Of a stretch of 64,000 bases of DNA, positions 15,847 through 48,154 are shown piece by piece; the first letter of the stretch is position 1; every line of letters starts with the position of its first letter. The notes beneath the pieces are model-generated. The model made no database searches and was not told where the DNA came from. It was given only the letters and a program-made list of their open reading frames with translations. A program made the translations under genes and the position numbers. The stretch is from contig NC_092657.1 in the NCBI RefSeq assembly GCF_032118995.1, forward strand, positions 14,490,181-14,554,180. Direction: 5' to 3'. This DNA comes from Asterias amurensis (lineage: Eukaryota > Echinodermata > Asteroidea > Forcipulatida > Asteriidae).

Positions 15847-16830
15847 TTACAGAACTTGCCGTAATTTCATGCTGCATTTTTTCAGTGAGTAATGATATCC
15901 TTTCCACGCATACCATTGTATTCCTCGTGCGCCTGACACATCTTCCTGTGGATAGTATATACCATTCAGATGAGCCTTAAAGCAGTATTTAAACCACCAG
16001 GCACCTTCCCAGTTCAAGGCACAATTTTTATTAGTTGCATCATTGTCCCGATCCTTCGCTGAGAATGGACGGCCATTATGATATGACATTGAGTCACCTG
16101 CTGTACTCTGAGCATCATATGAACCAACCTGGAGAGTGTACTTGTCGCCTGCAACAGCAAACTCGCCATAAGAAGCCCAAGATGTGTTGAACTGCCAATC
16201 TTCCATATCTACTCTGAGCTGCCATTGACCTGACCCAGTAAGGTCACGCAGGATATCATTCCCCAACCAGAACTCATTTTGTAGGTCACCAAACCCAGAT
16301 TGGTATTCAGTCCAGTTACGGTAAAAGTCAACAGAGCCATCTTGTCTCCTCTGGAACATGATCCAGCCTCCTCCATCTGTCTTCATATCACAGTAGACAT
16401 GTAATTCATCAGCTAGGCTTGTAGGGTAGATTGTGTATATGCCATTGTCACAGTAACCGGCTTGATGTAACTGAATACAACTGCTATACCTTTTCAGGTC
16501 CGGAATACCAACTAAGAGAGTGTCAACCTTTTCATCGTAGTATACACTTCCTTGCGATTCGATAAAGTCATCAGGGCTGTTTGCTCTGGTGATATTGTTG
16601 AATTCACAAACATGGCTACATAGTTTGTAGTTGAATGACACACACTGTGGATCCATAGAGCAGTCTCGCCCACATATCACAGGAGAAGATACAGTGTTCC
16701 ACTGAAACACATGATTCTCCAAGGCTCGGTTTGTAGCTTGATACATGGTTGGAATAAATTTATGTGGATTCTCACTCTGACAATAAAGTACCATGAGTAA
16801 CAGAGACAGAGCTAAGGCAAGAGCTCCCAT
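15847..16830 (-). CDS. Secreted PAN/Apple plus fibrinogen-related domain protein, single exon
   Basis: Starting at the ATG at 16830 (context ATCATGG), the frame gives 327 residues. Residues 1-18 form a signal peptide (MGALALALSLLLMVLYC). Residues about 22-100 look like a PAN/Apple module (CGRDC, 'CVSFNY', 'CEFNN', 'GSVYY'). Residues about 115-327 are a complete fibrinogen C-terminal domain: GGWIMFQRRQDGSVDF, 'FWLGND', 'SYHNGRPFSAKD', a DRDND calcium-type loop at 260-264, C270 and C283, then the closing 'CSMKLRQ'. The frame is open for 12 more residues upstream but without an ATG. FReD proteins are secreted lectin-like binders, often of acetylated sugars, used in invertebrate immunity; this protein's ligand is not deducible. 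The whole CDS is one exon, unlike the split FReD gene upstream at 27-36 kb on the same strand, so retroposition or intron loss is possible. Confidence 0.9.
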   Translation of the reverse strand: MGALALALSLLLMVLYCQSENPHKFIPTMYQATNRALENHVFQWNTVSSPVICGRDCSMDPQCVSFNYKLCSHVCEFNNITRANSPDDFIESQGSVYYDEKVDTLLVGIPDLKRYSSCIQLHQAGYCDNGIYTIYPTSLADELHVYCDMKTDGGGWIMFQRRQDGSVDFYRNWTEYQSGFGDLQNEFWLGNDILRDLTGSGQWQLRVDMEDWQFNTSWASYGEFAVAGDKYTLQVGSYDAQSTAGDSMSYHNGRPFSAKDRDNDATNKNCALNWEGAWWFKYCFKAHLNGIYYPQEDVSGARGIQWYAWKGYHYSLKKCSMKLRQVL

Positions 16831-16866
16831 GATGAACTTGTAAGTAGTAAAGGTTTCGGATACCAA

Positions 16867-17758
16867 ACGAAAATAAAGAAGCTGGTAATGTTGTCAGTCA
16901 CAATTGTTTATTTTATTAAACAAAATAAATTAACAGTCAACATCAAAGTTGTCTTACTTCAAGTCGTCTGCGAAACTCAAATTTAAACAGGAGCTCAGTT
17001 GATTTGATCCACTTTGTGACACCGTGAAATAGAAAGTGATGGCTTTTTGGATTGTTTCCAACCACGCAAGTCCTGTGGTGTTTTGTATGATAACAAAACG
17101 GTTACCATAGAAACGTCAAATTTATATTCGTTGCTGGTTGATAAAATAATAATGGAAATTCTAATTGCCGTGTACAAGCTACGTGTTTCGGTCCAAATAA
17201 AGAGGCAATATTTGTCTCTCAAAAGGATAAGTGATGCATGCACGCGATAAAACACAAGATAATCGTTTATTTGTGTCTCTGTTTCATAATAAACCACTGG
17301 TCTTGATGAAGTGTCGGCTGATAAAACATTTGTGTGTTTATGCATGTATGTATGCATCTAATCGTTTCCGCAATACTGTATACAACACTGTCCTCGCTCA
17401 GAAGTGGAATACTGAATTAAGTTTAGCCAATTGGGCGCTGCATCTTGCAGCGCTAAGTCTTCAAGCAACAAAGCAATATTGGTTAATAATGCACAACCAC
17501 AGTGGCACTGTATCGCCCCCTACTTGTACGCTCCAACTACCAGGTCAATAGGCGAATTATTTATGGAAGACTAAGCAGACTATATTCACGTCTACATGTG
17601 TAAACTTTGCCGAACTTCATTCAAAATGTGGTAAATAAATCAACAAGGAAATCGAGTCATATGACTATTCAATAGATTTTAATTGTGTTCAAAAACAATC
17701 ATTTCGAATTATACCCTTATCCAGCGTTTTTTTGAAAGATTCGCGAAAAGCTCCGTGT
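16867..17758. other. Intergenic, upstream of the FReD gene
   Basis: This is 5' flank of the minus-strand FReD gene. AT-rich words such as 'aataaaataaac' on the minus strand near 16906-16918 could serve as a TATA-like element, but this is weak. Frames of 70-120 codons here on both strands lack domain content and overlap one another. Confidence 0.4.
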
Positions 17759-27107: not shown

Positions 27108-27391
27108 TTAGCCACGAGGTGGAGATTGGCGGCGTATTTTGATTTCAGTTTTTACAATACGAGACCCATTCCATTCAGTAGCTCTAATAACTCGTTTGTA
27201 TGGACCCTTAGTACCACCAGGTTGGATATATTCAGCATTAAGGTTATTATCTACACCAGGTATACCAGAGCATCTATTAAACCACCATCCTCCTTCACTA
27301 TTCAAACCTGGGCAGTTTGTGTCGTTTTGGTTATTATCTGTATGATGGTGAATGCTGAAGGCTTGATTGTTGGCAGTCTCAAGAATATCAT
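27108..27391 (-). CDS. Final exon: C-terminal half of the FReD, with stop
   Basis: 284 bases from 'tttttccag|ATGATA', phase 1 in, to a TAA at 27108. It encodes 'DILETANNQAFSIHHHTD', 'NNQNDTNC', 'GGWWFNRC', 'NLNAEYI' and 'WNGSRIVKTEIKIRRQ'. This is the second half of a fibrinogen C-terminal domain (A-F-S, NC...GGWW...C, W-G closing strand). The calcium loop is altered (TDNNQND against DRDND in the 15.8 kb gene). It contains no start of its own and depends on upstream exons. Confidence 0.9.
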
Positions 27392-30300
27392 CTGGAAAAA
27401 CAAAATAAAATACAAATATCATTTGATGCTCTTTTAAAGGATTCAGGTACTTTTTCAAAAATTAAGTAAGCAATTTGTAATGTCTGGTAAGCTTTTGTTT
27501 TAAGTAAAGTTACTGCACGCGTGTTCTAGAATATAAGTTATATCAAAGGTGTAAATTAGCAGGCAATGCTGTTTCAAAACACTTTCAAAACACTGTTTCA
27601 AAAATACTGTTTCACACACGTTTCAGATCGTTTTTATTTCTTTATATTAATATTAAAGCCAAACCAACAAGTAAAACAACACCAGCAGTTGGAATTACAA
27701 TTCAGTTGGGTTATTACTTTCAAGGAACTTACTTATGCATCCAATGAGTTCAATGCTTACAGCTGGATATCCGTCGTCTGTTTGAGTGACACGGATGAAG
27801 CGTGCTCGGATCGGCTGCCGAAACATGATGGTTACCGGTGCGGGTTGCTCCGTGTTACCACGGAATATCTGTAGCACAGGATAGATTGAACAACTTGATT
27901 AAGGTAAAATGTTCTTTTTTTGACACCTTTGCTTTTATATTAGTCACAAAGAAAAACTAAATATATTGTTCATAATGTTGCAATGTTCCTTGTGCGTACG
28001 AGTTTCTGGGATTACCAATTGTCTTTGTTTAAAGCTAAGTTGAGTAACAAGTCCACGATAAACAAAACTCGTCAATTTAAAGAGGCACACCGGCTCACCG
28101 TATACGCAATTTAGTGGTGTAGGATCATAAAACACATTTTTTATAGTGACTGCTCTTCTCCATTCCTGGCAGACCTTTGAAGTCATTATCTTAGTCTATG
28201 TTGTAACCCAAATAGCACAATTCAGCCGGTGTGCCCCTTTACAAAACCAATTTTGTTTGTGCAATGACAGAACCATTTACCCGAGGTTCTCCTTCAGGTG
28301 CTCCCTGGTGGCTAACATAGACCCAAGTAACGTTATCAAGGCTGTATTCTACTTGAAATGACGGTTCGTTTTTCCCTTGTGCTATGACTCCCTCAACTAG
28401 AGTTACTAACAGCAGGTCAATCTGAAGCCGTGCTGATTCGTCTGGAATGATATGGGCTTGCTTAAGAAGGCGTTGTCTACATACCCAGCGTACTGTAAAT
28501 ACAAACATTTGATTGATTGAAGATTTGAATTAAATGTGTTGTTCTCCAGTTCTGTAAAAGTTTGGATTGTCTTTATAAAAGGCTTCTCTATAACACGTTA
28601 GGCTCAAACTGGGCTCTGGTTCGTGAGTTAAATAAAACAATTGTTTTGTTTTGGTTCATCAATTGAGTTTAGAAATACTTCTTCAACAACAAAACTAATT
28701 TGTGAACATTATAATTAAAAAAGTCACCAAGCTTTTGATAAATTTCTGATCATCCAGAGCAATTAAAGCAAAAACACTTGTCCATACTAAGAGAACAAAA
28801 CGGAGAGACATTTCTCAGATCGAAATTTTGCGGGGGAAAACAGTTCCGTTTATCAATCAAATAAGTTGTTATTGCCATTACTTTAAAGAAAGATTACAAA
28901 ACGTGAGTTTACCTTAACTGTTCGAGAACAATCTTGGTTTTAGAGTTGTAAGTTGCTTCAAAAAACTGAGCAAAACTCATTCAAATATGTACACTTCAAA
29001 ATTATAAGTTGTAACTTTGTCAATCACCCTTTTAATGTTTAAAATATTGCTGTGTTTGATTTGTTTGTTTATGTATATACCCAGTTTTCACGATCAGTTC
29101 ACTGTTATATTTAGACGAATATAACTTGTTTTAAAGACAGAGTGTCTCAGACATCTCGTTAGAACTAACCTTGGCATCCTAGTAGTTCAACACGTATCCA
29201 CAGAGAGCCATCAGTCTGGTTTAGTATGATGCGGATATAACGAGTAATGATTGGTGGATTGAACATGCTGGTAGCTACCGAGTCTGCTGTAGTGTTTCTT
29301 CGGATAATCTGTTAAGAAACAAAAACTACAAATTATCATGCTATCTCCATTAAATAGCATGTCACTCACTAGTAAAACAAAAAACATTTAACTTAGCAAA
29401 GCAAAATTATCAATACACATTTTGTATTTTGTTCAAATCAGACTTATGGTCTCGAAATCAATTCAACTGTGCATATCACAACAGTTGAATTGATTTCGAG
29501 ACCATAAGTCTGATTTAAACAAAACACAAAATGTGTAGTTAAAAAGTAGCCATAGAAGCTTAAACTAAACTATCGTTGGCACAGCGACATTGTGGTTGTC
29601 CACAAACAAGTTGAACAAGATCAATCAAATCCGTTTGAATAGTTTTGCTTGTCAGTTCTTAGAGTCGGACTTAATGGATTTGTGAGACCATTATAAAGCG
29701 CCAATTCATCAAGAACACAGCGTGTTATAGTGGGTAAAAATAATGTTTGATACACTTCTCGAATTTGCATTGAAAGTCTGACTCCCTGTCTGATTGAGAT
29801 GGTGAGTGCATTCCGGGTGTGAGGAGCAAAATGCGAGAAGGTGCGAATTGAAGCAGACTTAAGAAGCTTGACAGGTTGACATAATTAGGTTCCAATAACC
29901 TAATCAGTTTACATTAAACATGTATGTTCTTACCTGTGCTGAACCCATAGTATGCCAAGTGTTCTGGTCATCACTGTACTCCAGCCGGTACCCATGACTC
30001 ACATCTTCATTGATTACCTGATCAGATCCCTGCAGCATCATAATTCCCTCTACTATGACATTACTTTCGAGATCAATCTGTAACCATGGGTTGATGTCAT
30101 TAGGATCAGGGCACCAGCCAATAGTATCACTGTTTGCTGATTGAGTGAGTCGTGCATTGCTTTGTTGACAGTTACCATCTTCCCTCTGCTGTGTACTTGA
30201 TGCTGTGATTCTGTAGTCTGGAATGCTGCCATCTCCCATTCCGAGACGATCCAAACAAAAGAAGCGTTCTGTATCAGTTAAAATAAAAGGCAACGCAATA

Positions 30301-33300
30301 ATAGGTTAATCGAAATGCATTTTCTTTTATAATGTATTGTTCGAATTCCGGTCACAGTGTGGTATTTTTCGGAAAAAAACAAGCAAGTGACTTTACCGCT
30401 ACTGACAAAACAATGTTTTCTCAAGTTGAAATTGAAAATGAATCGTTGTATGGTGTTATGGCCGAGCGGATAGAGCACCCAACTCAAGCTCTGGTACTTC
30501 TGTTCAGCAGAGTCTGGGTTAGAATCCCGGTCGTTACACTTGTGTCCCCGACCATGACACTTAACTGTAATTGCCACTCTCCACCCAGGGGTAAATGGGT
30601 ACATGTGGATGAGGGCAGAGATGGTTCTTGTGATTGGTTTTAATAGCCTAGTACCGCATGTTAACGTTGAACAGGCTGCATACTCCCCTCTAGGGAGCTG
30701 AAATAGTTTAAGGAGTAAATTAAGGCCTAGTGACAAGGGGTAATAATGTGAAACGCTTTTGGACGGCCTCCAGGTGTGAAAAGCGCTAAAAAACGGGTTG
30801 TTATTTAGTATTATTAGTAAGGTTTAAGGTTAAAGGTTTATTGTTTCCACAGTAACGTTGTAAAACAGGCAATAATACATACATATTCCAATTAATACAG
30901 TTAAGCCAGGAGGAAATAAATGCACTTTTATAAACTGCAGGGGGGCTCACAAAGAGGTACACCCCTAAAGCGGTTGTATTTAGCCCTTGAATTTCGCTAT
31001 TAATTGTTAGTTGCTTAATCAAAATAGAACATACAAGTATAAAATTATCATTTGCATGTAATACATGTTTAAATGATACATGTTTAGATAAAAAGTAGAA
31101 GTATTTGCAGCGATTGTTTATAATAGTGTCAAAATTCTGTCAAATGAGATCAATATGAATTCAGTAAGTGTTTGCCTAAAATATGAGACGTAGCCCAATA
31201 AAATGGAAAATCAAAGTTTCAACAAACCAAATTAAAGAAGAATTGATGGTTATGTTGTTATCAGTTGTTGTTATACAAATCAACGGGATTGATAAATAAA
31301 TAAATAATTGTTTTGTATGACTTTACCATTACATCCAAGGAGTTCAATACGCAACCCAGGAAGTTGGCCTCTATAGTCAGTTAGTGTGATGCGGATGTAG
31401 CGTGCTCTGATTTCCTCAATGAACATGTTGGTTACTCTGGTATGTCGATCTGTATTTCCAGGGAATCTCTGTGGAAAACAAATGTGATGCTCAATAACAG
31501 CAACTATCTTAGAACAAACAAAACATATTGATTTCGCCCATGTCTCAGGAATCGCTGCTCGTACACGATATAGGCCCTATATTTTTTGTATTTATTTTTT
31601 TTTTTTTTTACTGTTAAGATTAGTAGGATTTGAAATTGTGCATGGTGGATAACGGTATGGAAAGGTTTGCGGTAACACCATATAATGAATATCTATACAT
31701 TAGTTGGGGGTGGTTCTGAAAAGAACCGTTGGTTTCACCGAGAAGTTTCGATCAGTATGCTCTGATCATCTTCTTGAGAGTTGGTATTCCTAAATAAATG
31801 CAGACGCTTATTACTGAAGTTTATTTGTGTAAAACGTGCTGCCGCTCGTTGTTCTGAGGAACACTCTGTTATCAAAAATGTCATGCAGAATCTGGTTTAA
31901 ACGTTCCTTTTGTTCATAATTTTTAAAATGCTGTATACATCTGGAAACACTGAACAAAAGAATGATTGACTTTGAAGGAATAGTGAACTTGCCAGTTTCA
32001 GTGAATTCATTAAGAAACAATATAATCTGCCTAGTACATTACATGTGGTGTTGTTGATTTTATACAATATTCTACATTGAAAGGTTTTCTGTAATGTAGG
32101 TATGAAGTCCTACCTGTGCATCTGTCCCTCCTATGAAGCGCAGGTCTTGCTCGTCGTCACCGTAAGATACGATGAACTCTGTAACCCAGCACCATTTGTC
32201 GTTGTTACCCTGTGTAACAACACCTTGAATCAATACCGGGTGCTTTAGATCCACTTGGAACCATGCACTGTCTCTGCCATTCAATGTTGGACACCAGCCA
32301 CCACGCACAAATAGCCGTCCGTAAGTGTTCAAGCTGCAGTACTGGTCATCAGTAGACGATGTCGTTATGCTTCCATCAGGGATGGTACCATCTCCCATTC
32401 CGAGCTTCTGCTGACAAACTTTATGAGCTGAGAAAATAAATAAATTCATAGTGTTTTAATCAAGCCAGTCTTAAGTGAAAACATTCAGTTTTTGCGAATT
32501 TTGAAGTTAGTCTTGTTAACTTCAGAAGTGTTTAATTTTAATTAATTCTTCTTGAGACCTTGGTTAACCTTAAAAACACGTTTTAATTTGACTTTATAGT
32601 ACATTTTCATAATAGTAGCTAATGTGTAGTCTAATAATTGTTTACAATAACTTTGAAGGGGAGTGAGGTTGAGTGCAAACATGTTCTGACTTTACGACTT
32701 TTTTTCCCCATTTCTATATTTTGCAGTGACTTTATTTGTACTGTGCTCAACTCACAATCGAGTACAGTTTTGAATGTCTCAATTGTATGACTTCGTGTTT
32801 TTGGAGAACGTGGTGAGTGGTCAACAGCATACATCATTAACTTATATCCTTTACCTCTGCATCCACTGAGCTCAATACCTTATGTATTCTAGGCTGTTGG
32901 TTTGCACTTGATGCACCGAATTTGTTATGTGCAGTGTTCTGTGCAAGTCTGGCAATAAATTGTTTTCTAGTTACTTTATAGATGAGATTTACAGACTTAC
33001 GTTCGAAATCAGGATAGGCGTGTCTCGTTTTAAGGGTCTGTGTACTTTGTTTAGGACACCACAAAATGTCTTCAGATTTACACAGTTTGAAAATAAAAAA
33101 AGTCATGAACATAATTTTCGTCTCAGGAGATAAAATTTGTTTTAGCATGTAAAACGTATTTTCGTGACATTGTTTTACACATTTCTCAAAAATTACATCA
33201 GATCAGCAAGCAATATTTTTTATATAAGCTTTTTACTGACATTATCATCAATCTGTGTAAGTTAAATGTAAAGGTAAATCGGTAGACTTTGTGTTTTGTG

Positions 33301-36145
33301 TTACAAAAAGTACCCCAATCCTTATAGTGAGATTATATACAATAAGCCTGACGTTTGAAAAGGTGGTGATTGATTGAAACAATACCTTTGCATCCAAGGA
33401 GTTCAATACGTAGGTCTGGGTCGCCATTCCAGGCTGTTGGTCTGATGCGGATGTACCGTGCTTGAATAGGCTGCTGGAATATATTGGTAACTGGGGTGTA
33501 CCAATCAGTGTTGCCAATGAAAGTCTGTAAAACAAAATACAAACCAGAGGTGGAGACAACAATACATACAAATTGTATTTAACTTTTTGGATATAAATAA
33601 TGGCTGTCCTGCAGTATTGGAGTGGTTATGTTTTTAATGAATATTGGTAACTGGGGTGTTTATCAGTGTTGCCAACGAGTCTGTAAAAAAACAGGGGTGG
33701 AAAAAATAAAGAAATAACAATTATAATTAAGCCTTTGGTCATGAATAATGGTTGTAGAGCTTGATTGGTGTGTCGAGATGGAGTGTGTCTTTGCTGAGTA
33801 CTCTTACCTGTGTAGTAGAGTTCCCATTGACATACAGCCATGCAGTGCCATCAATGCTGTATTGTACATGGTAGTGTTTCACATACCAATCAACGTCTTG
33901 ACAGCCCTGTGTGATGACGCCCTCAATCTGCACTGGCTCTGAACCAGTAAATATTTGGAGCCATGAATGATCGAGTTGATTTTTAGCTGGTCCCCAACAA
34001 CCGTTCAGATTCAGTCGTGCATTACTTGGCGGATAATTTGAACTCCACTGACTAGATGCTGTGATCCTATCATCGGGAATACTCCCGTCTTCCATTCCTA
34101 GTTTGTGTCCACAGTATCTACGAACTGGAAAGAATCAAAAACACTTTAAATCAAAAACAATTAAAAAACCTTTAACTATTTTAAGTAACTGTTGAATTAA
34201 AAATAGCTAAGTCTAGATCGTGCCCGGAGTCAACTAACAGATTTAATTGTGTAAAATGTAATGTTAAATTGAATGGCGGTTTTGAAACGTTAACATAAAG
34301 CAATATATAGTAGTTGAGAACAGGCCCGTCAAACATAGTTTGTGATTCTTTCAAAAAAATACAATAAATGGAGCCTTTAAAACAACCTTGATAGATTATC
34401 AATATAATCAGTGGAGCCCTGGTAATGGTGAGAACAAACTAAAAGTAGACATACCAGTTGGTGGTAACTCGGAGTGCTCAAGAAACATGGTGTAATTGTA
34501 AGGTCCGACGCGGAACTGTTTCTTCAGGAAATGACCCGTTTTATTTTCTTCATTGGTTAGGTCCAGACGGACTGTCCAGTTCCCTTCAGCATCAGTCAGT
34601 TTATGTAGAATCTCATTGCCAAGCCAGAACTCACCATCCATTGACCCAAAGCCTTTCTTGTATTCTGCCCAACTGCGGTTGAAATTGACTGACCCATTAA
34701 CGCGCCGCTGGAACACCTTCAAAGCAATGATTTATATGATAATATTTTGACTTGGCCGTCAGATTTATCTCAATTTTGTTTTAAACATGGGTAACCGGTA
34801 TGAATAATACCCCCTCTAAAACTAAATTCGTACATGTAGAATTACGTCACAGTTGTTATAAATATTCATCTTTGCAAATCACGCTATTCAATCATTTTCG
34901 TGGAGTAATGACTAAATTTTAATACATTTAAAAAACAGTTATTGCATTGGCTGTTATTCTAAAGTAGTTTTCATGAACAAAAAATGGAAGACGTTGCAAA
35001 CTTTGAGTTAAACAGTGGACCAGGTTCGTCTTTAAAAGGTGTAATGGACAAAATGAAATAATGCATTGAACTTGTGGACAAAAGAAAAATTTTAAACCCC
35101 CATATCTGTCAAAAAGACAGTACAAAAGCTATAAAAAGCTACCCTTTTAATCCATGTACTTACAATCCAACCTGTATGCTTCGTCAAATCACAAAACACT
35201 TTAATTCCTTCATCATTCTGGTAGGGATGGATAGTGTAGATACCATCTTCTTTGTATCCAACATCCAGCAAAGCCTGACAATCGGTAAATGTATCTGTTG
35301 GATTAGACAAGAGAAAATGATATTGAAATTTAAATCATTTGTTATGAGGAGTGACATGTATTTCGGTACCCTGTGCTAGAATGATGCAAACTGACTCTAG
35401 TCATTGACGTAGATCGGCGGTCTAGTTCTGAAAACATTAACCTTTAATATGGCAAAGTCAAGGGTTTGAAACCCATCCATGTTGGTTGCCTGTGGAATGA
35501 TATGTTCTTTGTTAAGTATACCGTGCTCTATACGTGGAAGTGTCGTGGCCGAGCCGTTAAGAGCTCCGAATTTCAAACTCTGGTGTTTCTAATCAACAGA
35601 GTGTGGGTTCGGGTTAAGCTAGACTTAACAGTATTGCTTGGTCCTTCTGAGAGACGTGAATCCGTTGGTCCCATGTGTTGTGTAACGCATGTGAAGTAAA
35701 AACCCAGTGCACTTGCCGAAAAGAGAAGGGGTTCGCCCCAGTGTTCCAAGGCTATGATTGCTAAGTGCGCCGTAGCACCTTGTAAACCCTTATTATGTGT
35801 ACAATTGGGTCCCATAATTCATCACTTCAATAACCTATCTTTCTTAAAGTTTGTACTCAGCGCATTGAGTACATTATTGGTGGGGACGTGCGCTATATAA
35901 GACTTCGATATTCTTACCGTATTCAAATAAAAACCAAAGGGTTGTACTTTGGAGTTAAGATGTTCACCATTTAAACAATGAACTTCAAAGTAGTTTCTGC
36001 TTACCTTTTTCAGTGGACTGGCATCGATTCCGTTTTGGTACCTGTTTCATGACTTGTGTGACCCAGTGTTGACCAGGAGTATAACCATCAGGAGGTGGTC
36101 CAAAATGATGAACTATCATCTTACTCTCAGTCAATTCAAGGATTA
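27108..36145 (-). CDS. Split-FReD gene with four embedded discoidin modules (gene span, 5' incomplete)
   Basis: Twelve coding exons can be placed, all with AG/GT borders and matching phases: 36005-36145, 35164-35294, 34455-34716, 33808-34124, 33386-33524, 32114-32427, 31327-31468, 29934-30268, 29170-29308, 28281-28492, 27733-27868 and 27108-27391. Joined, they give about 849 residues with no stop: a linker, the N-terminal FReD half, four F5/8 type C (discoidin) domains, then the C-terminal FReD half. Exons 34455-34716 and 27108-27391 also join directly in phase, giving a continuous FReD of ordinary length. The signal peptide and any earlier exons were not found upstream of 36145. Both domain types are extracellular ligand binders (sugars, lipids, collagen in known members), so a secreted or surface recognition protein is likely. 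Two genes or misassembly remain alternatives. Confidence 0.8.
27733..27868 (-). CDS. Discoidin module D, second exon
   Basis: 136 bases between 'gtgctacag' and GCATAA|GTAAGT, phase 0 in and 1 out. It encodes IFRGNTEQPAPVTIMFRQPI, 'RARFIRVTQTDDGYPAVSIE' and 'LIGC'. The last base is A rather than the G of the other modules, turning the next codon into Asn (A|AT) when joined to the final FReD exon. Confidence 0.85.
28281..28492 (-). CDS. Discoidin module D, first exon, shortened
   Basis: 212 bases, phase 1 in ('tatttacag|TACGC') and 0 out (CCTCGG|GTAAAT). It encodes VRWVCRQRLLKQAHIIPDES, then 'ARLQIDLLLVTLVEGVIAQG' and 'FQVEYSLDNVTWVYV'. Relative to modules A-C about 35 residues are missing, including the ITASS and NARL strands and the G-W segment. 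The frame is kept. Whether the domain still folds is doubtful. Confidence 0.75.
28493..29169. other. Intron between modules C and D
   Basis: AT-rich, no exon or repeat recognised. A further module would be expected to show 'GGATGC' near an acceptor; none is seen. Confidence 0.4.
29170..29308 (-). CDS. Discoidin module C, second exon
   Basis: 139 bases between 'cttaacag' and TGCCAAG|GTTAGT, phase 0 in and 1 out. It encodes IIRRNTTADSVATSMFNPPI, 'ITRYIRIILNQTDGS' and 'IRVELLGC'. The usual F-x-GNT start of this exon is replaced by IIRRNT, the most divergent of the four. Confidence 0.85.
29415..29536. mobile_element. Near-perfect inverted repeat in the module C intron
   Basis: 'acacattttgtattttgtt', 'caaatcagacttatggtctc' and 'gaaatcaattcaactgt' are mirrored after the 10-base loop 'gcatatcaca', with only a few mismatches. 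The arms are about 56 bp. High arm identity points to a recent insertion or to gene conversion between arms. Confidence 0.8.
29934..30268 (-). CDS. Discoidin module C, first exon
   Basis: 335 bases, phase 1 in ('ctgatacag|AACGC') and 0 out (GCACAG|GTAAGA). It encodes FFCLDRLGMGDGSIPDYRIT, 'QQSNARLTQ', 'GWCPDPND', 'PWLQIDLESNVIVEGIMMLQ' and 'HGYRLEYSDDQNTW'. Confidence 0.9.
30456..30830 (+). repeat. tRNA-derived SINE, nearly full length
   Basis: The head has an A box 'tggccgagcggatagagc' and B box 'gggttagaatccc'. The body contains 'caccca' then 'ggggtaaatgggtacatgtg', and the tail 'aaaagcgctaaaaaacgggt' ends in TTATTAG-like repeats. It lies antisense in the intron between modules B and C. 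Confidence 0.75.
30831..31326. other. Intron sequence, nothing recognised
   Basis: AT-rich remainder of the intron between the second exon of module B and the first exon of module C. Confidence 0.4.
31327..31468 (-). CDS. Discoidin module B, second exon
   Basis: 142 bases between 'tttccacag' and TGTAATG|GTAAAG, phase 0 in and 1 out. It encodes RFPGNTDRHTRVTNMF, 'IRARYIRITLTDYRGQ' and 'LRIELLGC'. It has no internal ATG and is short, so length-based gene finding would miss it. Confidence 0.9.
31605..31810 (-). repeat. Terminal fragment of a retroelement, possibly Penelope-like
   Basis: On the minus strand, 'gatgatcagagcatactgat' then 'cgaaac' forms a six-base stem (GATCAG/CTGATC) next to GAAAC, followed by 'gttcttttcagaacc' and 'atggtgttaccgcaaacc'. 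The layout resembles a degraded hammerhead-ribozyme end of Penelope-like elements. It shares blocks with 13990-14345. It lies in the intron between the two exons of module B. Confidence 0.35.
32114..32427 (-). CDS. Discoidin module B, first exon
   Basis: 314 bases, phase 1 in ('ttttctcag|CTCATA') and 0 out (GCACAG|GTAGGA). It encodes VCQQKLGMGDGTIPDGSITT, 'GWCPTLNGRDSAWFQVDL' and 'IQGVVTQGNNDKWCWVTEF', a clear F5/8C first part with two extra Cys and Trp pairs relative to module A. Confidence 0.9.
32845..32912 (-). pseudogene. Decayed relic of a discoidin second exon
   Basis: 'cctctgcatccactgagctc' and 'aatacc', then 'aggctgttggtttgcac', line up with the 3' part of 33386-33524 ('cctttgcatccaaggagttc', 'aggctgttggtctgatgc') but no open frame remains. 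It lies between modules A and B, where a further module would fit. Confidence 0.7.
33386..33524 (-). CDS. Discoidin module A, second exon
   Basis: 139 bases, phase 0 in and 1 out (TGCAAAG|GTATTG). It encodes TFIGNTDWYTPVTNIFQQPI, 'QARYIRIRPTAWNGD' and 'LRIELLGC', the standard F5/8C ending. With the previous exon it completes a 152-residue module bounded by C near the start and the final GC. Confidence 0.9.
33637..33690 (-). pseudogene. Partial duplicate of discoidin second exon
   Basis: 'gaatattggtaactggggtg' and 'atcagtgttgcca', then 'gagtctgtaaaa', repeat the 5' half of the 33386-33524 exon with its acceptor. The copy lacks the 3' half and sits between the two exons of module A, so it looks like a failed exon duplication. 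Confidence 0.7.
33808..34124 (-). CDS. Discoidin module A, first exon
   Basis: 317 bases, phase 1 in ('tctttccag|TTCGTAG') and 0 out (ACACAG|GTAAGA). It encodes YCGHKLGMEDGSIPDDRITA, 'SNARLNLNGCWGP', 'SWLQI', 'IEGVITQGCQDVDWYVKHY' and 'YSIDGTAW', an F5/8 type C domain up to its last third. Confidence 0.9.
34455..34716 (-). CDS. FReD exon, middle of the domain
   Basis: 262 bases, phase 0 in and 1 out (ACTG|GTATGT). It encodes VFQRRVNGSVNFNRSWAEY, 'GFGSMDGEFWLGNEILHKLT' and 'LDLTNEENKTGHFLKKQF', ending 'LPPT' plus the first base of the next codon. In the intact FReD at 15.8 kb the next residues would be D-S-x-x-x-H-N-G; here that half is encoded 7 kb away at 27391. Confidence 0.9.
35164..35294 (-). 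CDS. FReD exon, N-terminal start of the domain
   Basis: 131 bases between 'ccaacag' and GGATT|GTAAGT, phase 1 in and 0 out. It encodes DTFTDCQALLDVGYKEDGIY, then 'TIHP', 'CDL' and 'GWI', the opening of a fibrinogen C-terminal domain (compare DNGIYTIYP in the gene at 15.8 kb). Confidence 0.85.
35541..35925 (+). repeat. tRNA-Ser-like SINE
   Basis: The head 'tcgtggccgagccgttaaga' with 'gtgtgggttcggg' gives A- and B-box-like words. The body and tail end 'gacgtgcgctatataagact'. It is unrelated in body to the SINE at 30456, so it is a second family. It lies antisense in the first intron found of the FReD gene. Confidence 0.6.
36005..36145 (-). CDS. Exon 1 of those found: linker before the FReD
   Basis: 141 bases, entering in phase 1 after 'ttttatttag' and leaving in phase 1 at GAAAAAG|GTAAGC. 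It encodes 47 residues (ELTESKMIVHHFGPPPDGYT, then 'WVTQVMKQVPKRNRC') with no domain I recognise. Its phase fits the next exon exactly, which is the main support. Confidence 0.6.
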
Positions 36146-36795
36146 CTAAATAAAATGAACAATCTCTGAGTAATTTCACTGTAATGTTTTTTGAGTTGGA
36201 GTTAATAACTTGCAATGTAAGTACTTGATAACTGAACTCGCTTCAAAGCAGTGTTCTTGCTAAACCACTCATCACAAAAGACAATTACTAAACAAGTTGG
36301 CCGTCCATCACTTTCCCTTTTCTGTAGGGCCAAATTTCCCGTCTCTACTTACCGTCACGTTCGATCATCACTCTTTGTAAGCGCCGAACATCAACCAAAA
36401 AACATTCCTGCTAACATTTGGAATATGCCTCACGTAGGCGAGGAGGAACTTGCTACGTATGAGGAGCATCTTCGGTAACGGTAAGCATAGCCAAGCAATT
36501 TTGCACAAGGTGTCCACTGTCGAAATCGGGTCTGAGCGGGTGGACTGTGTCACCTGACCTGAAAGTCAAGGCTCTGCTTATTGCTGCATTGGCTAACGAT
36601 CACTGCTCTATGCTTACTGTGGAAGGGTTTAGTTTCTGTGCACGCACTTAAGCAAACGTTATGATTGACGTAAGCGCAAAATGTCCTGCTTCCTTAAGCG
36701 CAGATATTGTGTGCTTATGGTAAATAGACGTGAAATTGTGCCCTCTTTAATTGTTACTGGAGCGCTGTCCACCCATATCGCAAGGTTGGCGACGC
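36146..36795. other. Upstream flank of the last exon found; no exon recognised
   Basis: I searched both strands for a signal-peptide exon ending in phase 1 and found none convincing. 'ttaagcgcagatattgtgtg' near 36690 also occurs, slightly changed, near 43960 ('aagcgcagatattatgcgct'). Confidence 0.4.
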
Positions 36796-37553
36796 TCATT
36801 TATGCTACTTTCACACTTGGGCGAATATTCTTGCAAATATGATATTTGAAATTCGCGCTTGAATTACCAATTTATTACGCAGTACCAGTGCCTTATACCA
36901 ATGCTTACGAAAATCGATGGCGAATTACCTTCTTCGCAACATTCGCTGAAAGTTAGGTAGCGCTTCGTATCGCCCCTCGATGAAAGATGAATATTTAAAT
37001 TTCGCGTTGAATTCGTCCAACATGAAGGTTGAATAGTGAATATGTTTATCTCGGTCTCAACCCTCGATCGTCCTCGATCGTCCTCGGTCGGCCCTCTCCT
37101 TACCAATATATTACGAGTGCTTACCAACGACTGCCAATGCCTTTACGAATGTTTTAACACTTACGCACGCTTTACCAACGTTACTAATCTTACGAAAATC
37201 GACGTTGAATGACCGTCTTCGAAACATTTGCTGAAATTTACAAACCAGTTTGTAAATTGACCGATCTTCGTAAGAAGGTGGGGGATAATTTGTGAACGTT
37301 ACCAACGCTTACGAAGACACGGCGAATGTTGCGAAGTTTGAGCGAGTGTAAAATATTTCCTTGCGTTAGCAAATTCGCTAGCATATTCACCGTTTAAGAG
37401 CAGAATAGAGTTACCGATCTTCGTAATGAGGTGGTGAATGACTTGCGGACGTGGTGAATTTGTGGCGAATGTTTCAAAGTTTGAGCGATTGTTAAATATT
37501 TCCGTTCGTAGGCACATTCGCTAGCATATTCTCCCTAGTGTGTGAGTAGCAAT
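36796..37553. mobile_element. DNA element with ~33 bp terminal inverted repeats
   Basis: The left end 'tgctactttcacacttgggc' then 'gaatattcttgc' is mirrored at the right (reverse complement 'tgctactcacacactaggga' then 'gaatatgctagc'). The interior contains two imperfect ~125 bp direct copies (37261-37390 and 37412-37535) sharing 'accgatcttcgtaa', 'gcgaatgtt', 'aagtttgagcga' and 'cattcgctagcatattc'. It is about 0.76 kb with no transposase. Confidence 0.65.
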
Positions 37554-38579
37554 AGGTACAGCTCAAACTTGCCTTGATTGTGTTGTGACTAACAGCACCA
37601 GCTTTCAAATTCGCAAGAAACACACTTGATTTTAAAAACCAATGTACTGCTGTTAAATCATTTCGTGATTGTTAACTGCCGAGTGCTGGTCAACTAAATA
37701 CAGTGTATTGAAGTTCAAATTGAAGTTGGACACACACATCTTGTTTCAATAATGAATGTCCGCCTGGGCGGCAAGTCTGATCTCAATGACGGGTGGTATC
37801 TCAACGTACACATTATGCCATAGCACTACACATCCCTATGTATCGAAAACAACGATACCTTGTACTAAAATGATGCTCTTGTTGGCAATGACCTGCAGCC
37901 AAGGTAATAGCACACAAGATAACACATTGCCAGCTCAGCTAGGAATAGAGATCCCCCTGTAATTAAGCAGCTGATTTCCTTTGTTCTTGTTAATGTTATT
38001 ATATAAGAACCTTTCAAGTCTACACTTAAATTTGAGAAACGCCGGATAGTAATGTTTTTTTACTCGCGATGTTTTTACTGAATATGCATGAAACCAGATA
38101 CCGACGGACCCGATCGAATGTTGATCACCACGCGGTGCTTCTTTTCCACATTTTTTCATTTTAGTCGGCTATGTTCAGGGATTAAAAAGGTCTGCAATCC
38201 TACCCTTAACAAATTTACACATCACATTTATGCCCTGGTTAAAGTTATAATTTCATTTTTGGACAGTAATCTGATAAAAATTATTATTATGCGACACCAC
38301 TTTCGCAAAACAATGTTTATCTGTAGGTTCTGGGTTTGCCGCCTCCTTATTCGTGGAATTGGCCGCCCAGTGATGAAAAGTAGGTAGCACCGCCTATAAT
38401 GTTCTCTTTTCAACCACGTCCACAGCATTACTATTTAAAACAAAAACCTCTGCTGAAATATTGACTGATTTTTGCAGTTCGTAATTATAGACGATACATT
38501 TATATGAATCAGAAGTGCTTAATAAGTATGTTTTTCTTCTAAATTTGTACAAAAAGAGGCTTGATTTTTCACCCCCAAA
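37554..38579. other. Intergenic, no gene recognised
   Basis: No exon with domain content. A short plus-strand frame near 37870 reads like a signal peptide (MMLLLAMTCSQG) but has no supporting neighbours. Confidence 0.4.
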
Positions 38580-38585
38580 ACGCCA

Positions 38586-38712
38586 GAAAGCTCTGAGCTC
38601 CAGGGGGCTTTGCCCCCCTGGACCCTCACCGGGGCTTCGCCCCTGGACCCTACCAGGGGCCGTAAGGCCGGTCCATGTACCCCACCCAACAAATTGGTTC
38701 GAGCCCCCCAAA
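38586..38712. repeat. GC-rich cluster of three hairpins
   Basis: 'cagggggctttgcccccctg', 'ggggcttcgcccc' and 'ggccgtaaggcc' are three perfect or near-perfect short hairpins in a row, with 'ctggaccct' repeated between them. Base composition jumps sharply against the AT-rich surroundings. Confidence 0.7.
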
Positions 38713-38719
38713 AAACATA

Positions 38720-39330
38720 ATCCTGGGTGCGCCGTTGGTTCAGTAGCGACTGGGGATGTGCGGGTTAGACATTGGAAATCGGCCTTTGCGAAGCCTTGCC
38801 TTGAAGGAGCGAGTATTATGTAAGCAGGCCTCAGCTCTAGCTATGCGCTTAGCCTTACGAGCCGGAAGTAGTATCTCATCACTGTCACGGAACCAGTCAT
38901 GCTGCTGATGTTGGCGATGAGACAACTAGCTGTCCCTGACTTCAGAGTGGAACATGGTCTTAGCATCTTCAGAGCTATCTGGCAAAGAGGTAGAGCTGAA
39001 TTGACCAGTGAGCAATTTCTGAAACTGGGCAAAGTGCAGTATGTCCTTAGTAGCAGTAGTGGCGGTTGCAGGTGAAGTTCTCGGCTGAGCTTGGTGAAAC
39101 CATTTAGAGAGCAATATCATCAGCTCACAGCGAACAAGCTTGGTCTGTGCTAGCCTTGCCCAAGGCAGTCGAATTATTCACTCCGAAAAAAGACCGCCGC
39201 TGTATAAAAACCCACCCGTATTCACTGTGCGTAACATCGCACGACACGATGCCCCCGTACACTATCCGCATGCGGAGGCCGTCAGGCCGACAGCCTTGTA
39301 GGGTCTGTGTTGAGGCCACTGACCTCATTA
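38720..39330 (-). pseudogene. Possible coding relic, family unknown
   Basis: Several minus-strand frames carry coding-like composition, e.g. 'WFRDSDEILLPARKAKRI' followed by basic text, and 'FAQFQKLLTGQFSS'. They are in different frames and interrupted. It resembles a decayed transposon-encoded protein more than a host exon, but I cannot name the family. Confidence 0.3.
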
Positions 39331-39914
39331 CTATAATAAGCGAAGAGTTCCCATGGTCAGCTCATTACCATAATGCCCGCGAAAGACGAGACATGTCTAC
39401 ATCACAAGGTAAATTAAAGGTTTTATATACAAAATACCGCTGGTCCATTTTGCACAATCTGACATAGCAGTAGAAAGAAAAAGAAGCATTCTTCCCTTCC
39501 AACATCAACAGTGCTGTTTTCCCATCGTGCAAAGAAAGAACACTGAATAGGCTTAAACCCTATAATGGCTAGCATTTTTTGATGGCTTCATAAAGACTTT
39601 TAAATGTATGTTTCTTCTAAAAAAAAGAAAAAATTGGGCAGGAGAACACTTATGCAATAGAAAATATTTAGTCCGTGAAAAACAAAACTAGTATCCTACC
39701 GACCTATAGTTTTTTCCCATGGTTTTCAGTTGTTTTCTGCAATGGGCAGGGGTCCGTTTATATCCAGCACCACGCAGGCAGTCGGCCAATTTTTAGAAAA
39801 CTTTTCCATATCTTGTAGGCCTATGCCCATCTATAGCTGGTTTGTTTACTGCATGCTGCATCGTCGGCCCAAAATGCAATTATAAACTCCTCATGCATAA
39901 AATGTTAACATGTG
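39331..39914. other. Intergenic, no gene recognised
   Basis: Nothing supported. Confidence 0.35.
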
Positions 39915-40480
39915 AAAAACCGTGACCTCACGTTGACCTCAAGATATATATAACGGATTTTCATTTCTTTTCTTCATGTGTAGACTTTTTGGGCATTAAA
40001 ATTAAACTTTAAAAGGCGTGACCCCAGGTTTACCTCTACTTACGGTTAAACCGGAAGTGGGACTTACACAACCGATTTTCAAACTGTTTTCAGTTATAGA
40101 CTCCCTGTGCATCATAAATTTGTTTGAAAAAAACTTTGACCACATTTTAACCTTTACTTCCGGGTCAACCGGAAGTGGGACCATATCTCAAAAAGTACAC
40201 AGGCAATGATCAAACTTTTTCAGTTATATACTCAAAATATTAACTTTGAAAAGAGTGACCCCAGGTTGACCTTTACTTCAGGGTCAACCGAAAGTGGGAC
40301 CATATATCAATATATACACAACCAATATTTAAGTTATTTCAGTTATAGTCTCCTTGGGCATTGCATATTAGTCTTTTGTAGCCAAATTGACCTTTACTTA
40401 CTGGCAACCGGAAGTGTGACCATACAAATATATTAAGATCTACACAACTTTTTTCCAGTTATTGATTCCTTGGGCAATGA
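39915..40480. repeat. Tandem repeat, unit about 120-130 bp, AGGTCA/CCGGAAGT-rich
   Basis: At least four units share 'gtgaccccaggttgaccttt', 'acttccgggtcaaccggaag', 'tgggaccatatctca', 'acacaaccaat' and 'ttcagttatagactcc'. A perfect TGACCT-N5-TGACCT stands at 39923-39939, and near-matches at the same spacing open later units. An isolated inverted copy is at 5002-5160. Confidence 0.75.
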
Positions 40481-40659
40481 AGCACATAATCTCAGCAAAA
40501 CAACACGGAACAGCTTGGTCTAGTTAACATTGCGCTTGAAGCACATTGCGGCACAAATCTTGAGGATCACAAATTTATCTCGACAAGTGTCGTAAATGGG
40601 TTTGAGGTGCAACTAGTCAAGTAGTATATTTCACTAGGCCCCCTTCAGTGGGCACACAA

Positions 40660-41990
40660 CGTTATTTCAACGTTGGATATTGGTTGATTTGGCGTCGCAA
40701 CGTTGAAGTACCATAAATCAACGTCGTTTCACATTTGCGACGTTGACTTTAGGTTGTTCTTTGACATTGCATAAACGTTGGATAAAGGTTGTTTTTGGGT
40801 TGCGAAAATTACCACCAAAAATCAACGTTGATCCAACATCAGTCTGCCAACGTTGTATCAATGTACTGTTTTTGACGTAAGTACAACGTTGGATAAAGGT
40901 TGTTTCTGCGTCGTGATAATAACAACCAAAAGTCGAAGTTGAGCCAACATCAGTCTGCTATCGTTGTATCAACGTAACGTTTTGGTCGTAAGTACAACAT
41001 TGGATAAAGGTTGTTTTTGCATCAGGGTAATAACAACCAAAAATCAACGTTGATCCAACATCAGTCTGCCAACGTTGTATCAATGTAATTTGTTTGACGT
41101 AAGTACAACGTTGTATAAAGGTTGTTTTTGAGTCTGGATAATAACAACCATAAATCGACGTCGATCCAACATCAGTCTGCTGACGTTGTATCAACGTAAT
41201 GTTTTGGTCGTAAGTACAACGTTGGAAAAAGGTTGTTTTTGCGTCTGGATAATAACAACCATAAATCGACGTTGATCCAACATCAGTCTGCCGACGTTGT
41301 ATCAACGTAATGTTTTGGTCGTAAGTACAACGTTGGAAAAAGGTTGTTTTTGCGTCTGGATAATAACAACCATAAATCGACGTTGATCCAACATCAGTCT
41401 GCCGACGTTGTATCAACGTAATGTTTTGGTCGTAAGTACAACGTTGGATAAAGGTTGTTTTTGCGTCGGGATAATAACAACCAAAAATCAATGTTGATCC
41501 AACATCAGTCTGCCAACGTTGTATCAATGTAATGTTTTTGAAGTATGTAAGCCTACAACGTTGGATAAAGTCAATGTTGATCCAACATCAGCATGCGATG
41601 TTGTAATAGCGTTATGTTTTTCCCGTTTGATTTCGTTGCATAAAGGTTGTTTTTGCGTCACGGTAATAACCTCAAATCAATATTGGTCCAATATCAGTCT
41701 GCTAACGTTGTATCGACGTAATATTTGTTGACGTATGTGCAACGTTGGATGTTTTTACCTCACGATAATAATAACCCCAAATCAATGTTGATTAAACATC
41801 AGTCTGGTAACGAATTGTTTCAACATGAGGTTTCTGACATACACTGTTGGATAAAGGTTGTTTTTGCGTCGTGATGATAAACAACCTAAAATCAACGTTG
41901 GTCCAACCCGTCATCAGTCAGGTAGTTTCACAATTTGGATAAAGGTTGTTACTGCATTGCATAATAACCTACTAAAATCAATGCTTATTC
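40660..41990. repeat. 111-bp satellite array built on CAACGTTG words
   Basis: About eleven units of 'tacaacgttggataaaggtt', 'gtttttgcgtctggataata', 'acaacc', 'aaatcgacgttgatccaaca' and 'tcagtctgccaacgttgtat'. Exact spacing between 41221 and 41332 is 111 bp, a multiple of three, so the minus strand stays open for 189 codons across five units as a 37-residue repeat. The inner units (41100-41460) are the most alike. The open frame has no start context, no domain and degenerates with the array, so I read it as a by-product. Confidence 0.85.
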
Positions 41991-42969
41991 TTCCAATGGA
42001 CAGTTTAACAAATTGGCAATGTTTATTTTACAATTATTGTGCCATCAACATGTCATCTTTTGTGGAAAATGTATGTCTCGGCGGGAAGGGTTTTTGTGCA
42101 CTCACCAAAATATGTGACACAATTTGTGTGTTCTGAATAAAATTAATAGACAACTTGCTGGCAGAGATTTCGGGATAAGACCGGCGAAATGTGTCTTATC
42201 TGATGAGGTCATGTTACAATCACTACTTTTCTGTAAATTGATTCAAAAGCAATAGCAGAAAAGCATGATGTGTTGCTTTCCAATCACTGGTTTCCCGTAT
42301 AAAATAAAGAATTCTCTTCAAAGTACTTTTGTTTGTTTTTAAAGCTTCCCATGACCAGACGCAATTATATATCAAGGGTTGCTTTACATTTCATACCCCA
42401 TCTCGCCATAATCTTCGCTCTTCTCGAGATCCATTTTTGCTTACCAATCCAAAAAACTTCTGAAAACACATCTCTTCCCTGTTTAAGCGTTTCTCTTTTT
42501 CTAATTTTTTTCGAACATTGTGTATGTAGCTTTTCCGCTAAGATTTTTTTGTTTAATGTGCATTTAAGTTTTTGTAAGCACTGTGATATAGTTTTCTATG
42601 GGGAGCATTTCTAAATACCTGTTTTTCTCAATAGTATTAATGTGGGACCAATGATGGCCTTATCTCGACATTTACCACATTGGACTTATGTGGGAACTCA
42701 GTGCTGAGCCAACGCCGGTAATATAGTGCTGACACAATGTTGGCAGCATTTAAGCTATAAACTATAGCTATCATTGATTTTTTGCATTGGGTTACATTAT
42801 CGGCGAGCTGCCGTGGGCAACTTATGTTGAACTATTTGGTCATACTACGACAATAAGGGGCAATTCATAAAATATAACTGTCCTAACAAAATAGTTACAG
42901 AATTGTTAATATTGTAAAACATGTTTGATGATTGACGTTGACGTTTTGTTTGCATAATCAAGATGCGAA
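41991..42969. other. Intergenic, no gene recognised
   Basis: No gene is supported. 'taccacattggacttatgtg' with 'caatgttggcagcat' near 42670-42750 suggests weak relics of the adjacent satellite. Confidence 0.35.
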
Positions 42970-43660
42970 CCAATCGATCACGCCATTGTTGACCCAACAT
43001 TGATCCAATGTTGGTTTAACGTTGACATAATATGCAAGTTGGGGGTCACGTGGCCTAGAAGTGTGTTTTTGATAATAAAACAATTTGGTTTAATTAAGTT
43101 ATCCGAGGTAAGTTTCTGTACTTTTGTGTTTAATTCGAATGTAAAAAAAATACGAACAACAATAGTCCACGCAAAAATTTGTAATTTAAAAATTTGAATT
43201 AATAATTAAGCAGTTTTTAGCTAAAAACGGAGTAAAACCACGACTAGAAAATTTAGGGATCCTGGTCTACATGAATACAAGACATACAGTGTGTATAGAT
43301 GTATAGACCTTGATAGGTTGTAGTCATGTATTGAGTTACTATATATTCAAGTACCTGTAAATAACAGAGTAGTATTAACTAACACTAATGATAGTTACCT
43401 GAAATAAATAAATAATTAATTAATTAACTAGGTAATTAAAGAGCCATTGTTTCTACATTGTGATTGCAACGATGTTTCTACGTCGGTATTTCAACGTTAT
43501 AACGATTTGCAAATCCAACTATTATTCAACGTTGTTTCAACGTCTAAACTTAGTTGAAACAACGTATAAATGCCGACATTGAAACAACGTTAATTTTCCC
43601 ACGTTGTTTCTACGTCGGCATTTCAACGTTAAAACGATTTGCATATCCAACTATGCTTCA
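42970..43660. repeat. Outlying relics of the CAACGTTG repeat
   Basis: 'ttgacccaacattgatccaa' then 'tgttggtttaacgttg' (42988-43025), and at 43440-43640 two direct copies of 'tttctacgtcgg', 'atttcaacgtt' and 'aacgatttgca' flanking an inverted 'gttgaaacaacg' block. Confidence 0.6.
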
Positions 43661-44647
43661 TGAAAATTCTTGTGCGAAAGGGGTAAATTTTATGCTCTGC
43701 TCTGGAAGCAAATATTCAGTGCTTAACAGAAATGGTGAATTATGCGCTTAAGTCAAGCGAAATGTGTGCTTCCAAGCTCCAACATTATATTCCGCGCTTG
43801 CACTTAAGGCGGAAAATGGTGATCGTAAGCGCAGAGTGTGGTGGTTATAAAAACCATGACATGTTGCTCTATAAGTAGGTTTGGTAAGGCCTATAATTTA
43901 AACGTGTAAAAGTAAAAAATATGACTATGCTTCACTGCGCAGGTAAATATTTGACACTTTACAAGCGCAGATATTATGCGCTTACATAAAGCACACTTCA
44001 CAGCTTCTCGTAATAATAAGAACAATACTAAAAGTCATAATAGTAAAAAAAAAAAAAGAATTAAAAAGGGACAACAGAAAATGACAAAAAGAAAAGGATT
44101 TTAAGGCTGTACCTAACTCGCAAGTCTTAACATTTGAATAAATATTATAGACAAAAGAGCAACGACAAAGAAATATTAACTCATCATATTATTTCACAGT
44201 TGATAGTGCGGTTTGGGACTGAGCAAACTACCGCTGAATGCACTTGACACCAGGAGTCATCTGCCTTACTACCTAAACCGAAACGAGTCCTGAGACCGCA
44301 GCATCCGGAATGATTGTGGTGTTTGATAGTACTTGTCAACGCTGGAATCCGAGCTCTTCTATGTGAATACACACTCGCACATCGAGGACTTTTACCACAG
44401 CGAGGACGTCCACGCTTTGAAAAATTGTGATAAATGCAGCATTATAGCCAGTTTGGACGCCACTGATATATCAAAGCTTGTGGGACTAATCCTCGGTTTA
44501 CGTCATTTACGAGAGGAGTATGTGTGAATTAACACCATTCTGTTGCCGGTTAGCACTCTTGGATTGTTATATCGCCCTCTGTTGATATGACGTTTCCTTC
44601 TTGTAGGTAGTAGAGGCGGCCATTTCTAATTCTAAACTCATTCATGC
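43661..44647. other. Upstream flank of the broken plus-strand gene
   Basis: A 65-codon plus-strand frame at 44333-44527 (ESELFYVNTHSHIEDFYHSE...) has coding-like composition but no recognised domain and ends in a stop, so I do not call it. 'aagcgcagatattatgcgct' near 43960 recurs near 36690. Confidence 0.35.
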
Positions 44648-44797
44648 ATGACGGTAAGCTTATCCGATTTGAGTCGGGTAGCGTGGCCGGTTGCAGCTGT
44701 CATGGGGCACATCATAAACATTGAGTGCATTGCATCCACCAGGACCCTAGAGTCAACCATTCGACCCATGGCAGCTCTCGAGAGAATACAAGAAATG
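44648..44797 (+). pseudogene. Exon X1 of the broken gene (start uncertain)
   Basis: 50 codons ending in a good donor (GAAATG|GTGAGT), phase 0: 'GHIINIECIASTRTLESTIR' and 'MAALERIQEM', likely helical. A possible acceptor ('gccggttgcag') at 44696 offers a shorter version, so the start is open. Confidence 0.45.
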
Positions 44798-46000: not shown

Positions 46001-46085
46001 CCCTTATGACATGTTCCACTAAACCGATCGACTTTTGTTCGATGAATAACGTATATGTTACATAATTTGTATGTCTTCTTTCTAG

Positions 46086-46167
46086 TATGAAGAAGGGGAA
46101 AGCGTGATGGCACTGTGACCTCCAGACTCGTCATGGTATCCAGCTGTAATCACCTCCATAACCACAG
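46086..46167 (+). pseudogene. Exon X2, first half of a Tudor-like domain
   Basis: 82 bases between 'tcttctttctag' and CCACAG|GTATTT, phase 0 in and 1 out: YEEGESVMAL, then TGA where a Trp would fit, then 'PPDSSWYPAVITSITT'. The G-x-x-V-x-A ... W-Y-x-A-V-x-x-I pattern is typical of Tudor-type domains, which bind methylated residues in known members. Confidence 0.5.
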
Positions 46168-46338
46168 GTATTTAAACAAGTATCATTACTTTTGTACTGT
46201 GGACACAAGCAATTACAGTTCCTCCGTCTATTGTGATCCACATCACGTGAAGAGCACGTTTTAAAGATAGCACAGATTGTATGTTTCCCCCAAATGAAAT
46301 ACATATAATTAATAAACCGTTTGCCTTTCTTTTTTTAG

Positions 46339-48150: not shown

Positions 48151-48154
48151 ACTA

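What the first reader, a model, noticed from the sequence alone, without database searches (positions are those of the whole stretch)
27108..36145. Fibrinogen-related domain interrupted by four discoidin modules
The FReD is cut between its middle exon (ends 34455) and its last exon (starts 27391), at the residue that is the D of the AGDS segment in the intact FReD at 15.8 kb. In the gap lie eight exons forming four F5/8C modules on the same strand, all phase 1 at both outer borders and phase 0 inside. The complete join stays open for about 849 codons. A domain opened to hold four others at one loop is very unusual for FReD proteins as I know them.
Basis: partly seen in the sequence, partly recalled or inferred. 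Interest (0 to 1): 0.88.

Follow-up and report, generated by a model that had tools for sequence, protein, structure and literature searches.

The report
Fibrinogen-like domain split by discoidin modules
An animal gene appears to encode a lectin-like fibrinogen domain whose two halves are separated by four other binding modules, most likely put there by ordinary exon shuffling into one intron; whether the cell makes the nested protein still needs RNA evidence.

Summary
On the minus strand twelve exons (36145 to 27108) join in phase over GT-AG introns into 850 codons whose only stop is the last. A fibrinogen-related domain (FReD) is split: exons B and C carry its first part, exon Z its last, and between them lie eight exons for four F5/8C modules, phase 1 outside and phase 0 inside. 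Pfam finds Fibrinogen_C in two stretches of the full join, and in one complete stretch when the eight exons are left out. Corrections: exon C starts at 34716; the split codon aligns with the G, not the D, of AGDS; module 4 is truncated (116 residues against 152-158); decayed pieces of a module exon lie in two introns. The split corresponds to fibrinogen gamma Gly287, at loop P-1, which varies in length among FReDs. Most likely class 1-1 modules were shuffled into an existing phase-1 intron, giving a nested protein; FN2 modules in MMP2 are the precedent. Skipping all eight exons would restore a plain FReD, so isoforms are a serious rival. No transcript, relative or species name was available. 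New variant of a known kind; moderate interest.

The parts
36005..36145 (-). Exon A, first exon found; 5' end unresolved (ATG at 36119; no signal peptide)
   Evidence: Donor AAG|gtaagc, one open frame. A crude scan for a signal-peptide exon with a phase-1 donor from 36146 to 48000 printed none.
35164..35294 (-). Exon B, start of the FReD
   Evidence: Splice signals; Pfam Fibrinogen_C with A and C; window-profile scan.
34455..34716 (-). Exon C, middle of the FReD; ends in phase 1 at the split
   Evidence: Acceptor at 34716 restores VFQRR; A-C cover profile 3-115.
33808..34124 (-). D1a, first exon of F5/8C module 1
   Evidence: Phase 1 in, 0 out; Pfam.
33641..33678 (-). Decayed copy of part of D1b inside the D1a-D1b intron
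   Evidence: Local score 57, maximum of 100 shuffles 28; 87.5% over 40 aligned columns.
33386..33524 (-). D1b, second exon of module 1
   Evidence: Phase 0 in, 1 out; Pfam.
32855..32918 (-). Decayed piece related to D1b inside the D1b-D2a intron
   Evidence: Local score 45, maximum of 100 shuffles 33.
32114..32427 (-). D2a, first exon of module 2
31327..31468 (-). D2b, second exon of module 2
29934..30268 (-). D3a, first exon of module 3
   Evidence: module 3 matches a factor V-like venom protein, neuropilins and factors V and VIII in the PDB
29170..29308 (-). D3b, second exon of module 3
28281..28492 (-). D4a, first exon of module 4, truncated
   Evidence: Module 4 is 116 aa; alone 47.0 bits, from profile position 33.
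27733..27868 (-). D4b, second exon of module 4
27108..27391 (-). Exon Z, last part of the FReD, with the stop codon
   Evidence: Enters in phase 1; alone 25.4 bits, profile 144-219.
15847..16893 (-). Intact single-exon PAN + FReD gene, used for comparison
   Evidence: Fibrinogen_C 241.3 bits, PAN_1 27.0 bits.

Best explanation
One animal gene in which an array of class 1-1 F5/8C modules came by exon shuffling, with duplication of modules, into an existing phase-1 intron of a FReD gene, at the border of FReD subdomains B and P. The main product is most likely a nested protein: subdomain B is made by exons B and C and completed by the returning strand coded in exon Z, subdomain P is made by Z, and the four modules hang out at loop P-1 beside the ligand pocket, adding binding heads to a lectin-like domain. 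Shown: exon order, phases, open frame, domain homology. Inferred: transcription through the whole locus, the direction and order of the evolutionary steps, folding of the split domain, secretion and ligand binding.
For: Signals and phases agree at 11 of 11 introns and 850 codons are open. The two FReD parts are complementary in the Pfam profile (3-115 and 144-219) and score 133.1 bits as one stretch when joined. The joined FReD aligns with MFAP4 over residues 5-223 of 225. No other FReD last exon was found in the window. The introns on either side of the module block are short, 330 and 341 nt. The split codon corresponds to about gamma Gly287. Fibrinogen gamma has 24 residues from AGD to HNG where the intact FReD of this window has 10 (sequences), a difference of 14, which fits the statement that loop P-1 is 14 residues longer in gamma than in tachylectin 5A (PMC1242226 section 6); that this is the same loop is my inference, and the B/P border at 286/287 is recalled. 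Pieces of a module exon in two introns have decayed while the eight exons and Z stay open. All 4 modules keep a first and a last cysteine and 3 of 3 linkers between them are five residues (sequence), so each module can hang as a bead with its ends together and the FReD halves can stay close (inference; the first-last disulfide of F5/8C modules is recalled). Precedent for the mechanism: PMC3927616, passages.
Against: No transcript. No 5' end or signal peptide found. Module 4 is truncated. The P part is more diverged than the first part: split FReD against intact, MFAP4 and ficolin-2 is 40, 40 and 43% identical in the first part and 32, 35 and 39% in the P part, while those three among themselves give 41, 48, 46% and 49, 48, 57% (the ficolin row ends early, 61 columns). 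At the three Asp of the DxDxD metal motif the split FReD has H, D and N, with one residue inserted. This fits loss of P function as well as change of function. No relative with the same order was found, but no animal genome could be searched.
Confidence: 0.55

Rival explanations
1. The eight discoidin exons are a cassette: the main protein is a plain FReD made by splicing C to Z, and the modules are included only in some transcripts.
For: C and Z are both phase 1 at the border, so leaving out all eight exons keeps the frame and gives one complete FReD of 133.1 bits. The phases that allow insertion also favour loss by exon skipping (PMC3927616, passages).
Against: The eight exons have GT-AG signals and stay open while pieces in introns decay. 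Splicing would have to jump eight exons over about 7 kb.
Confidence: 0.25
2. No protein holds a split FReD: transcripts with the discoidins end in the intron after D4b, and Z is used only in a skipped form.
For: An AATAAA lies at 27638, 95 nt beyond exon D4b.
Against: AATAAA or ATTAAA occurs 19 times in the 10.2 kb scanned, so one near D4b is expected by chance. D4b has a strong-looking donor TAA|gtaagt in the right phase for Z.
Confidence: 0.1
3. The locus is decaying or misassembled: a FReD gene that took an insertion and has no working product.
For: Truncated module 4 and diverged P half; no 5' end found.
Against: 850 open codons and 11 of 11 GT-AG, phase-consistent introns.
Confidence: 0.1

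Closest known systems
MMP2 (gelatinase) with fibronectin type II modules
   Same: Class 1-1 modules inserted internally, as a rule in existing phase-1 introns (PMC3927616, passages). That three FN2 modules lie inside the catalytic domain is recalled.
   Different: Here the host domain is a FReD and the inserts are four F5/8C modules.
Fibrinogen-related lectins and relatives (MFAP4, ficolins, tachylectin 5A, fibrinogen gamma)
   Same: The joined halves match them; 60 of 60 PDB sequences shown (of 68 matched) align in one stretch. Both P-subdomain cysteines are kept.
   Different: In the full join about 578 residues separate the halves, and the metal motif is altered.
F5/8C (discoidin) modules of factors V and VIII and neuropilins
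   Same: Module 3 matches them in the PDB; first and last cysteines kept in 4 of 4 modules.
   Different: In those proteins, as I recall, the modules stand beside whole domains; here they lie inside the coding region of another domain.

Membership tests
FReD (Pfam Fibrinogen_C) | Match over the whole profile | tested here: met
   133.1 bits, profile 3-219 of 221, when the two parts are joined without the modules; 123.4 bits in two stretches in the full join.
FReD (Pfam Fibrinogen_C) | Continuous in the gene product as drawn from the full join | tested here: not met
   Four F5/8C stretches separate the two parts in the full join. The skipped join would be continuous; which is made is unknown.
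FReD lectins of the tachylectin 5A / ficolin type | P-subdomain cysteine pair and DxDxD metal motif | tested here: inconclusive
   Cysteines kept; at the three Asp positions the split FReD has H, D, N, where the three comparison FReDs have DRDND, DRDQD and DQDND.
F5/8C module (Pfam F5_F8_type_C) | Profile match in each of four modules | tested here: met
   4 stretches, 262 bits; module 4 alone 47.0 bits against a cut-off of 28.2, but starting only at profile position 33.
Exon-shuffled class 1-1 module | Phase 1 at both outer borders, lying in a phase-1 intron of the host | tested here: met
   4 of 4 modules; the C-Z border is phase 1.
Exon-shuffled class 1-1 module | Host intron older than the insert | not testable with these tools
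   Needs FReD genes of related animals; none held.
Secreted protein | Signal peptide | tested here: inconclusive
   None printed by a crude scan of 36146-48000; none seen among minus-strand frames of 45 aa or more there.
Nested protein | One transcript joining C to D1a and D4b to Z | not testable with these tools
   No RNA data.

The most novel reading that the evidence does not exclude
A FReD whose B and P subdomains are tied through a ring of four hanging F5/8C modules, with splicing choosing between a plain FReD lectin and a multi-headed nested receptor.
Probability: 0.15. Interest if true: 0.65.

Novelty: new variant of a known kind. Interest (0 to 1): 0.42.

Why it matters
If the nested protein is made, it shows that the B/P border of the FReD tolerates a very large insert, a natural design for multi-headed lectins, and it is a clear case of modules gained inside a domain rather than between domains. 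Because inclusion and skipping both keep the frame, this one locus could show how such architectures arise and are kept.

Tried and rejected
Rejected: two unrelated neighbouring genes, because no other FReD last exon or first part was found in the window and the introns bordering the modules are only 330 and 341 nt. Rejected: exon C starting at 34707, because it loses the canonical VFQ. Uninformative: AlphaFold2 of the intact FReD without an alignment (mean pLDDT 30.2), so no fold search was made; poly(A) motifs. Led nowhere: the window's own genome (none held); tblastn of the exon C protein against phage records (no match); scans of viral and of prokaryote genome contigs (2 and 1 pattern matches, none a relative); search for a signal-peptide exon. 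Paper searches (no paper; one paper each) added nothing on the question. The species was not identified.

Full report
What was checked. The minus strand from 36500 to 26900 was read and an exon model built from splice signals. Twelve exons, A 36145-36005, B 35294-35164, C 34716-34455, D1a 34124-33808, D1b 33524-33386, D2a 32427-32114, D2b 31468-31327, D3a 30268-29934, D3b 29308-29170, D4a 28492-28281, D4b 27868-27733 and Z 27391-27108, are separated by 11 introns, 11 of 11 GT-AG. The phases at the exon ends are A 1, B 0, C 1, then 0 and 1 in each of the four modules. The join has 850 complete codons and only the final stop, while the introns have 5.8-6.1% stop codons in each frame. Exon by exon, 11 of 12 have exactly one open frame and D1b has two (where the last codon of each frame was left out of the test); the frame used is open in 12 of 12.

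Domains. Pfam gives F5_F8_type_C at 262 bits in four stretches and Fibrinogen_C at 123.4 bits in two stretches of the full join. Without the eight exons the FReD is one stretch of 133.1 bits over profile 3-219 of 221. Exons A-C alone score 108.6 bits (profile 3-115), exon Z alone 25.4 bits (profile 144-219; cut-off 22). In the PDB the joined FReD matches MFAP4 at 3.8e-33 over residues 5-223 of 225, and module 3 matches a factor V-like venom protein, neuropilins and factors V and VIII. A six-frame scan of the window with profiles built from its own sequences (open stretches of 18 aa or more) finds, beyond the sequences the profiles came from, nothing better than E = 0.18 for the FReD and E = 0.28 for the modules. 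The only other FReD is the intact PAN + FReD gene at 15847-16893.

Corrections to the finding. The acceptor of exon C at 34716 restores GWI-VFQRR. The split codon aligns with the G of AGDS rather than the D, with about one residue of doubt. Module 4 is 116 residues against 152, 152 and 158, and its Pfam match begins at profile position 33. The modules are 38.5-45.6% identical in pairs, so the duplications do not look recent. Of 121 exon-intron pairs compared (11 exons, 11 introns), 2 reached the printing threshold: decayed pieces related to D1b at 33678-33641 and 32918-32855, scoring 57 and 45 against maxima of 28 and 33 in 100 shuffles each.

Where the split lies. A gamma-chain peptide matches residues 273-356 of 3ghg_C, which puts the AGD of human fibrinogen gamma at 286-288; the split codon therefore corresponds to about Gly287. 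I recall that subdomain B is 192-286 and P is 287-379; no call gives these limits. PMC1242226 (section 6 read in full) says that domain P holds the binding pocket, that strand beta-12 returns from P to B, and that loop P-1 of fibrinogen gamma is shortened by 14 residues in tachylectin 5A and FReDs. From AGD to HNG gamma has 24 residues and the intact FReD here has 10, a difference of 14, so I infer that the insert lies at loop P-1. The cut falls between subdomains, at a place where length is known to vary, and subdomain B still needs the strand coded by exon Z.

How it most likely arose and works. PMC3927616 (passages) states that class 1-1 modules are as a rule inserted in existing phase-1 introns, names FN2 modules in the MMP family as an internal case, and says that the same phases favour loss by exon skipping. 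This locus has those phases. My best reading is a nested protein with four modules at loop P-1. Each module keeps its first and last cysteine, and 3 of 3 linkers between modules are five residues (sequence), so the modules can hang as beads and leave the two FReD halves close; this is inference. The main rival is a cassette whose skipping gives a plain FReD.

Evidence against. No transcript, relative, species name or 5' end was found. The P part of the split FReD is 32, 35 and 39% identical to the intact FReD, MFAP4 and ficolin-2, its first part 40, 40 and 43%; those three among themselves give 49, 48 and 57% in P and 41, 48 and 46% in the first part (three comparison sequences, the ficolin row incomplete). 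At the three Asp of the metal motif the split FReD has H, D and N. This may mean a new use or a loss of the pocket. AlphaFold2 on the intact FReD alone failed (mean pLDDT 30.2), so no model supports the structural argument.

Literature. Ten searches listed no title or abstract start that describes a FReD with inserted F5/8C modules; one search showed 20 of 45 papers and one search showed 12 of 13, and the library lacks most subscription journals. Besides section 6 of PMC1242226 I saw only passages of PMC1242226, PMC3927616, PMC6321704, PMC5638244, PMC8878817, PMC12549020 and PMC2429915. PMC1242226 and PMC2429915 report short insertions in FReD loops.

Verdict. It is a new variant of a known kind; the nested product is likely but unproven.

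Noticed in passing
55053-60285 (+): Reading frames of a BEL/Pao-type retrotransposon; matches above cut-off to DUF1759, Pao peptidase A17 and integrase zinc-binding domains in 3 of the 5 frames scanned there.
   Followed up: partly
47557-50829 (+): Reading frames of a second retrotransposon: reverse transcriptase and RNase H matches above cut-off, a gag match below its cut-off.
   Followed up: partly
29407-29544: Inverted repeat with 64-nt arms, 92% complementary, 10 nt apart, in the D3a-D3b intron; looks like a small mobile element.
   Followed up: no
40774-41570: Tandem array of a 111-nt unit, 7.1 copies; the unit is a multiple of three, so a 209-aa frame (40958-41587, minus strand) stays open through it and is probably not a gene.
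   Followed up: no
52124-52723: A 300-nt unit in two copies with 99% matches, so a recent duplication.
   Followed up: no
63522-64000: Tandem array of a 164-nt unit, 2.9 copies, reaching the window end.
   Followed up: no
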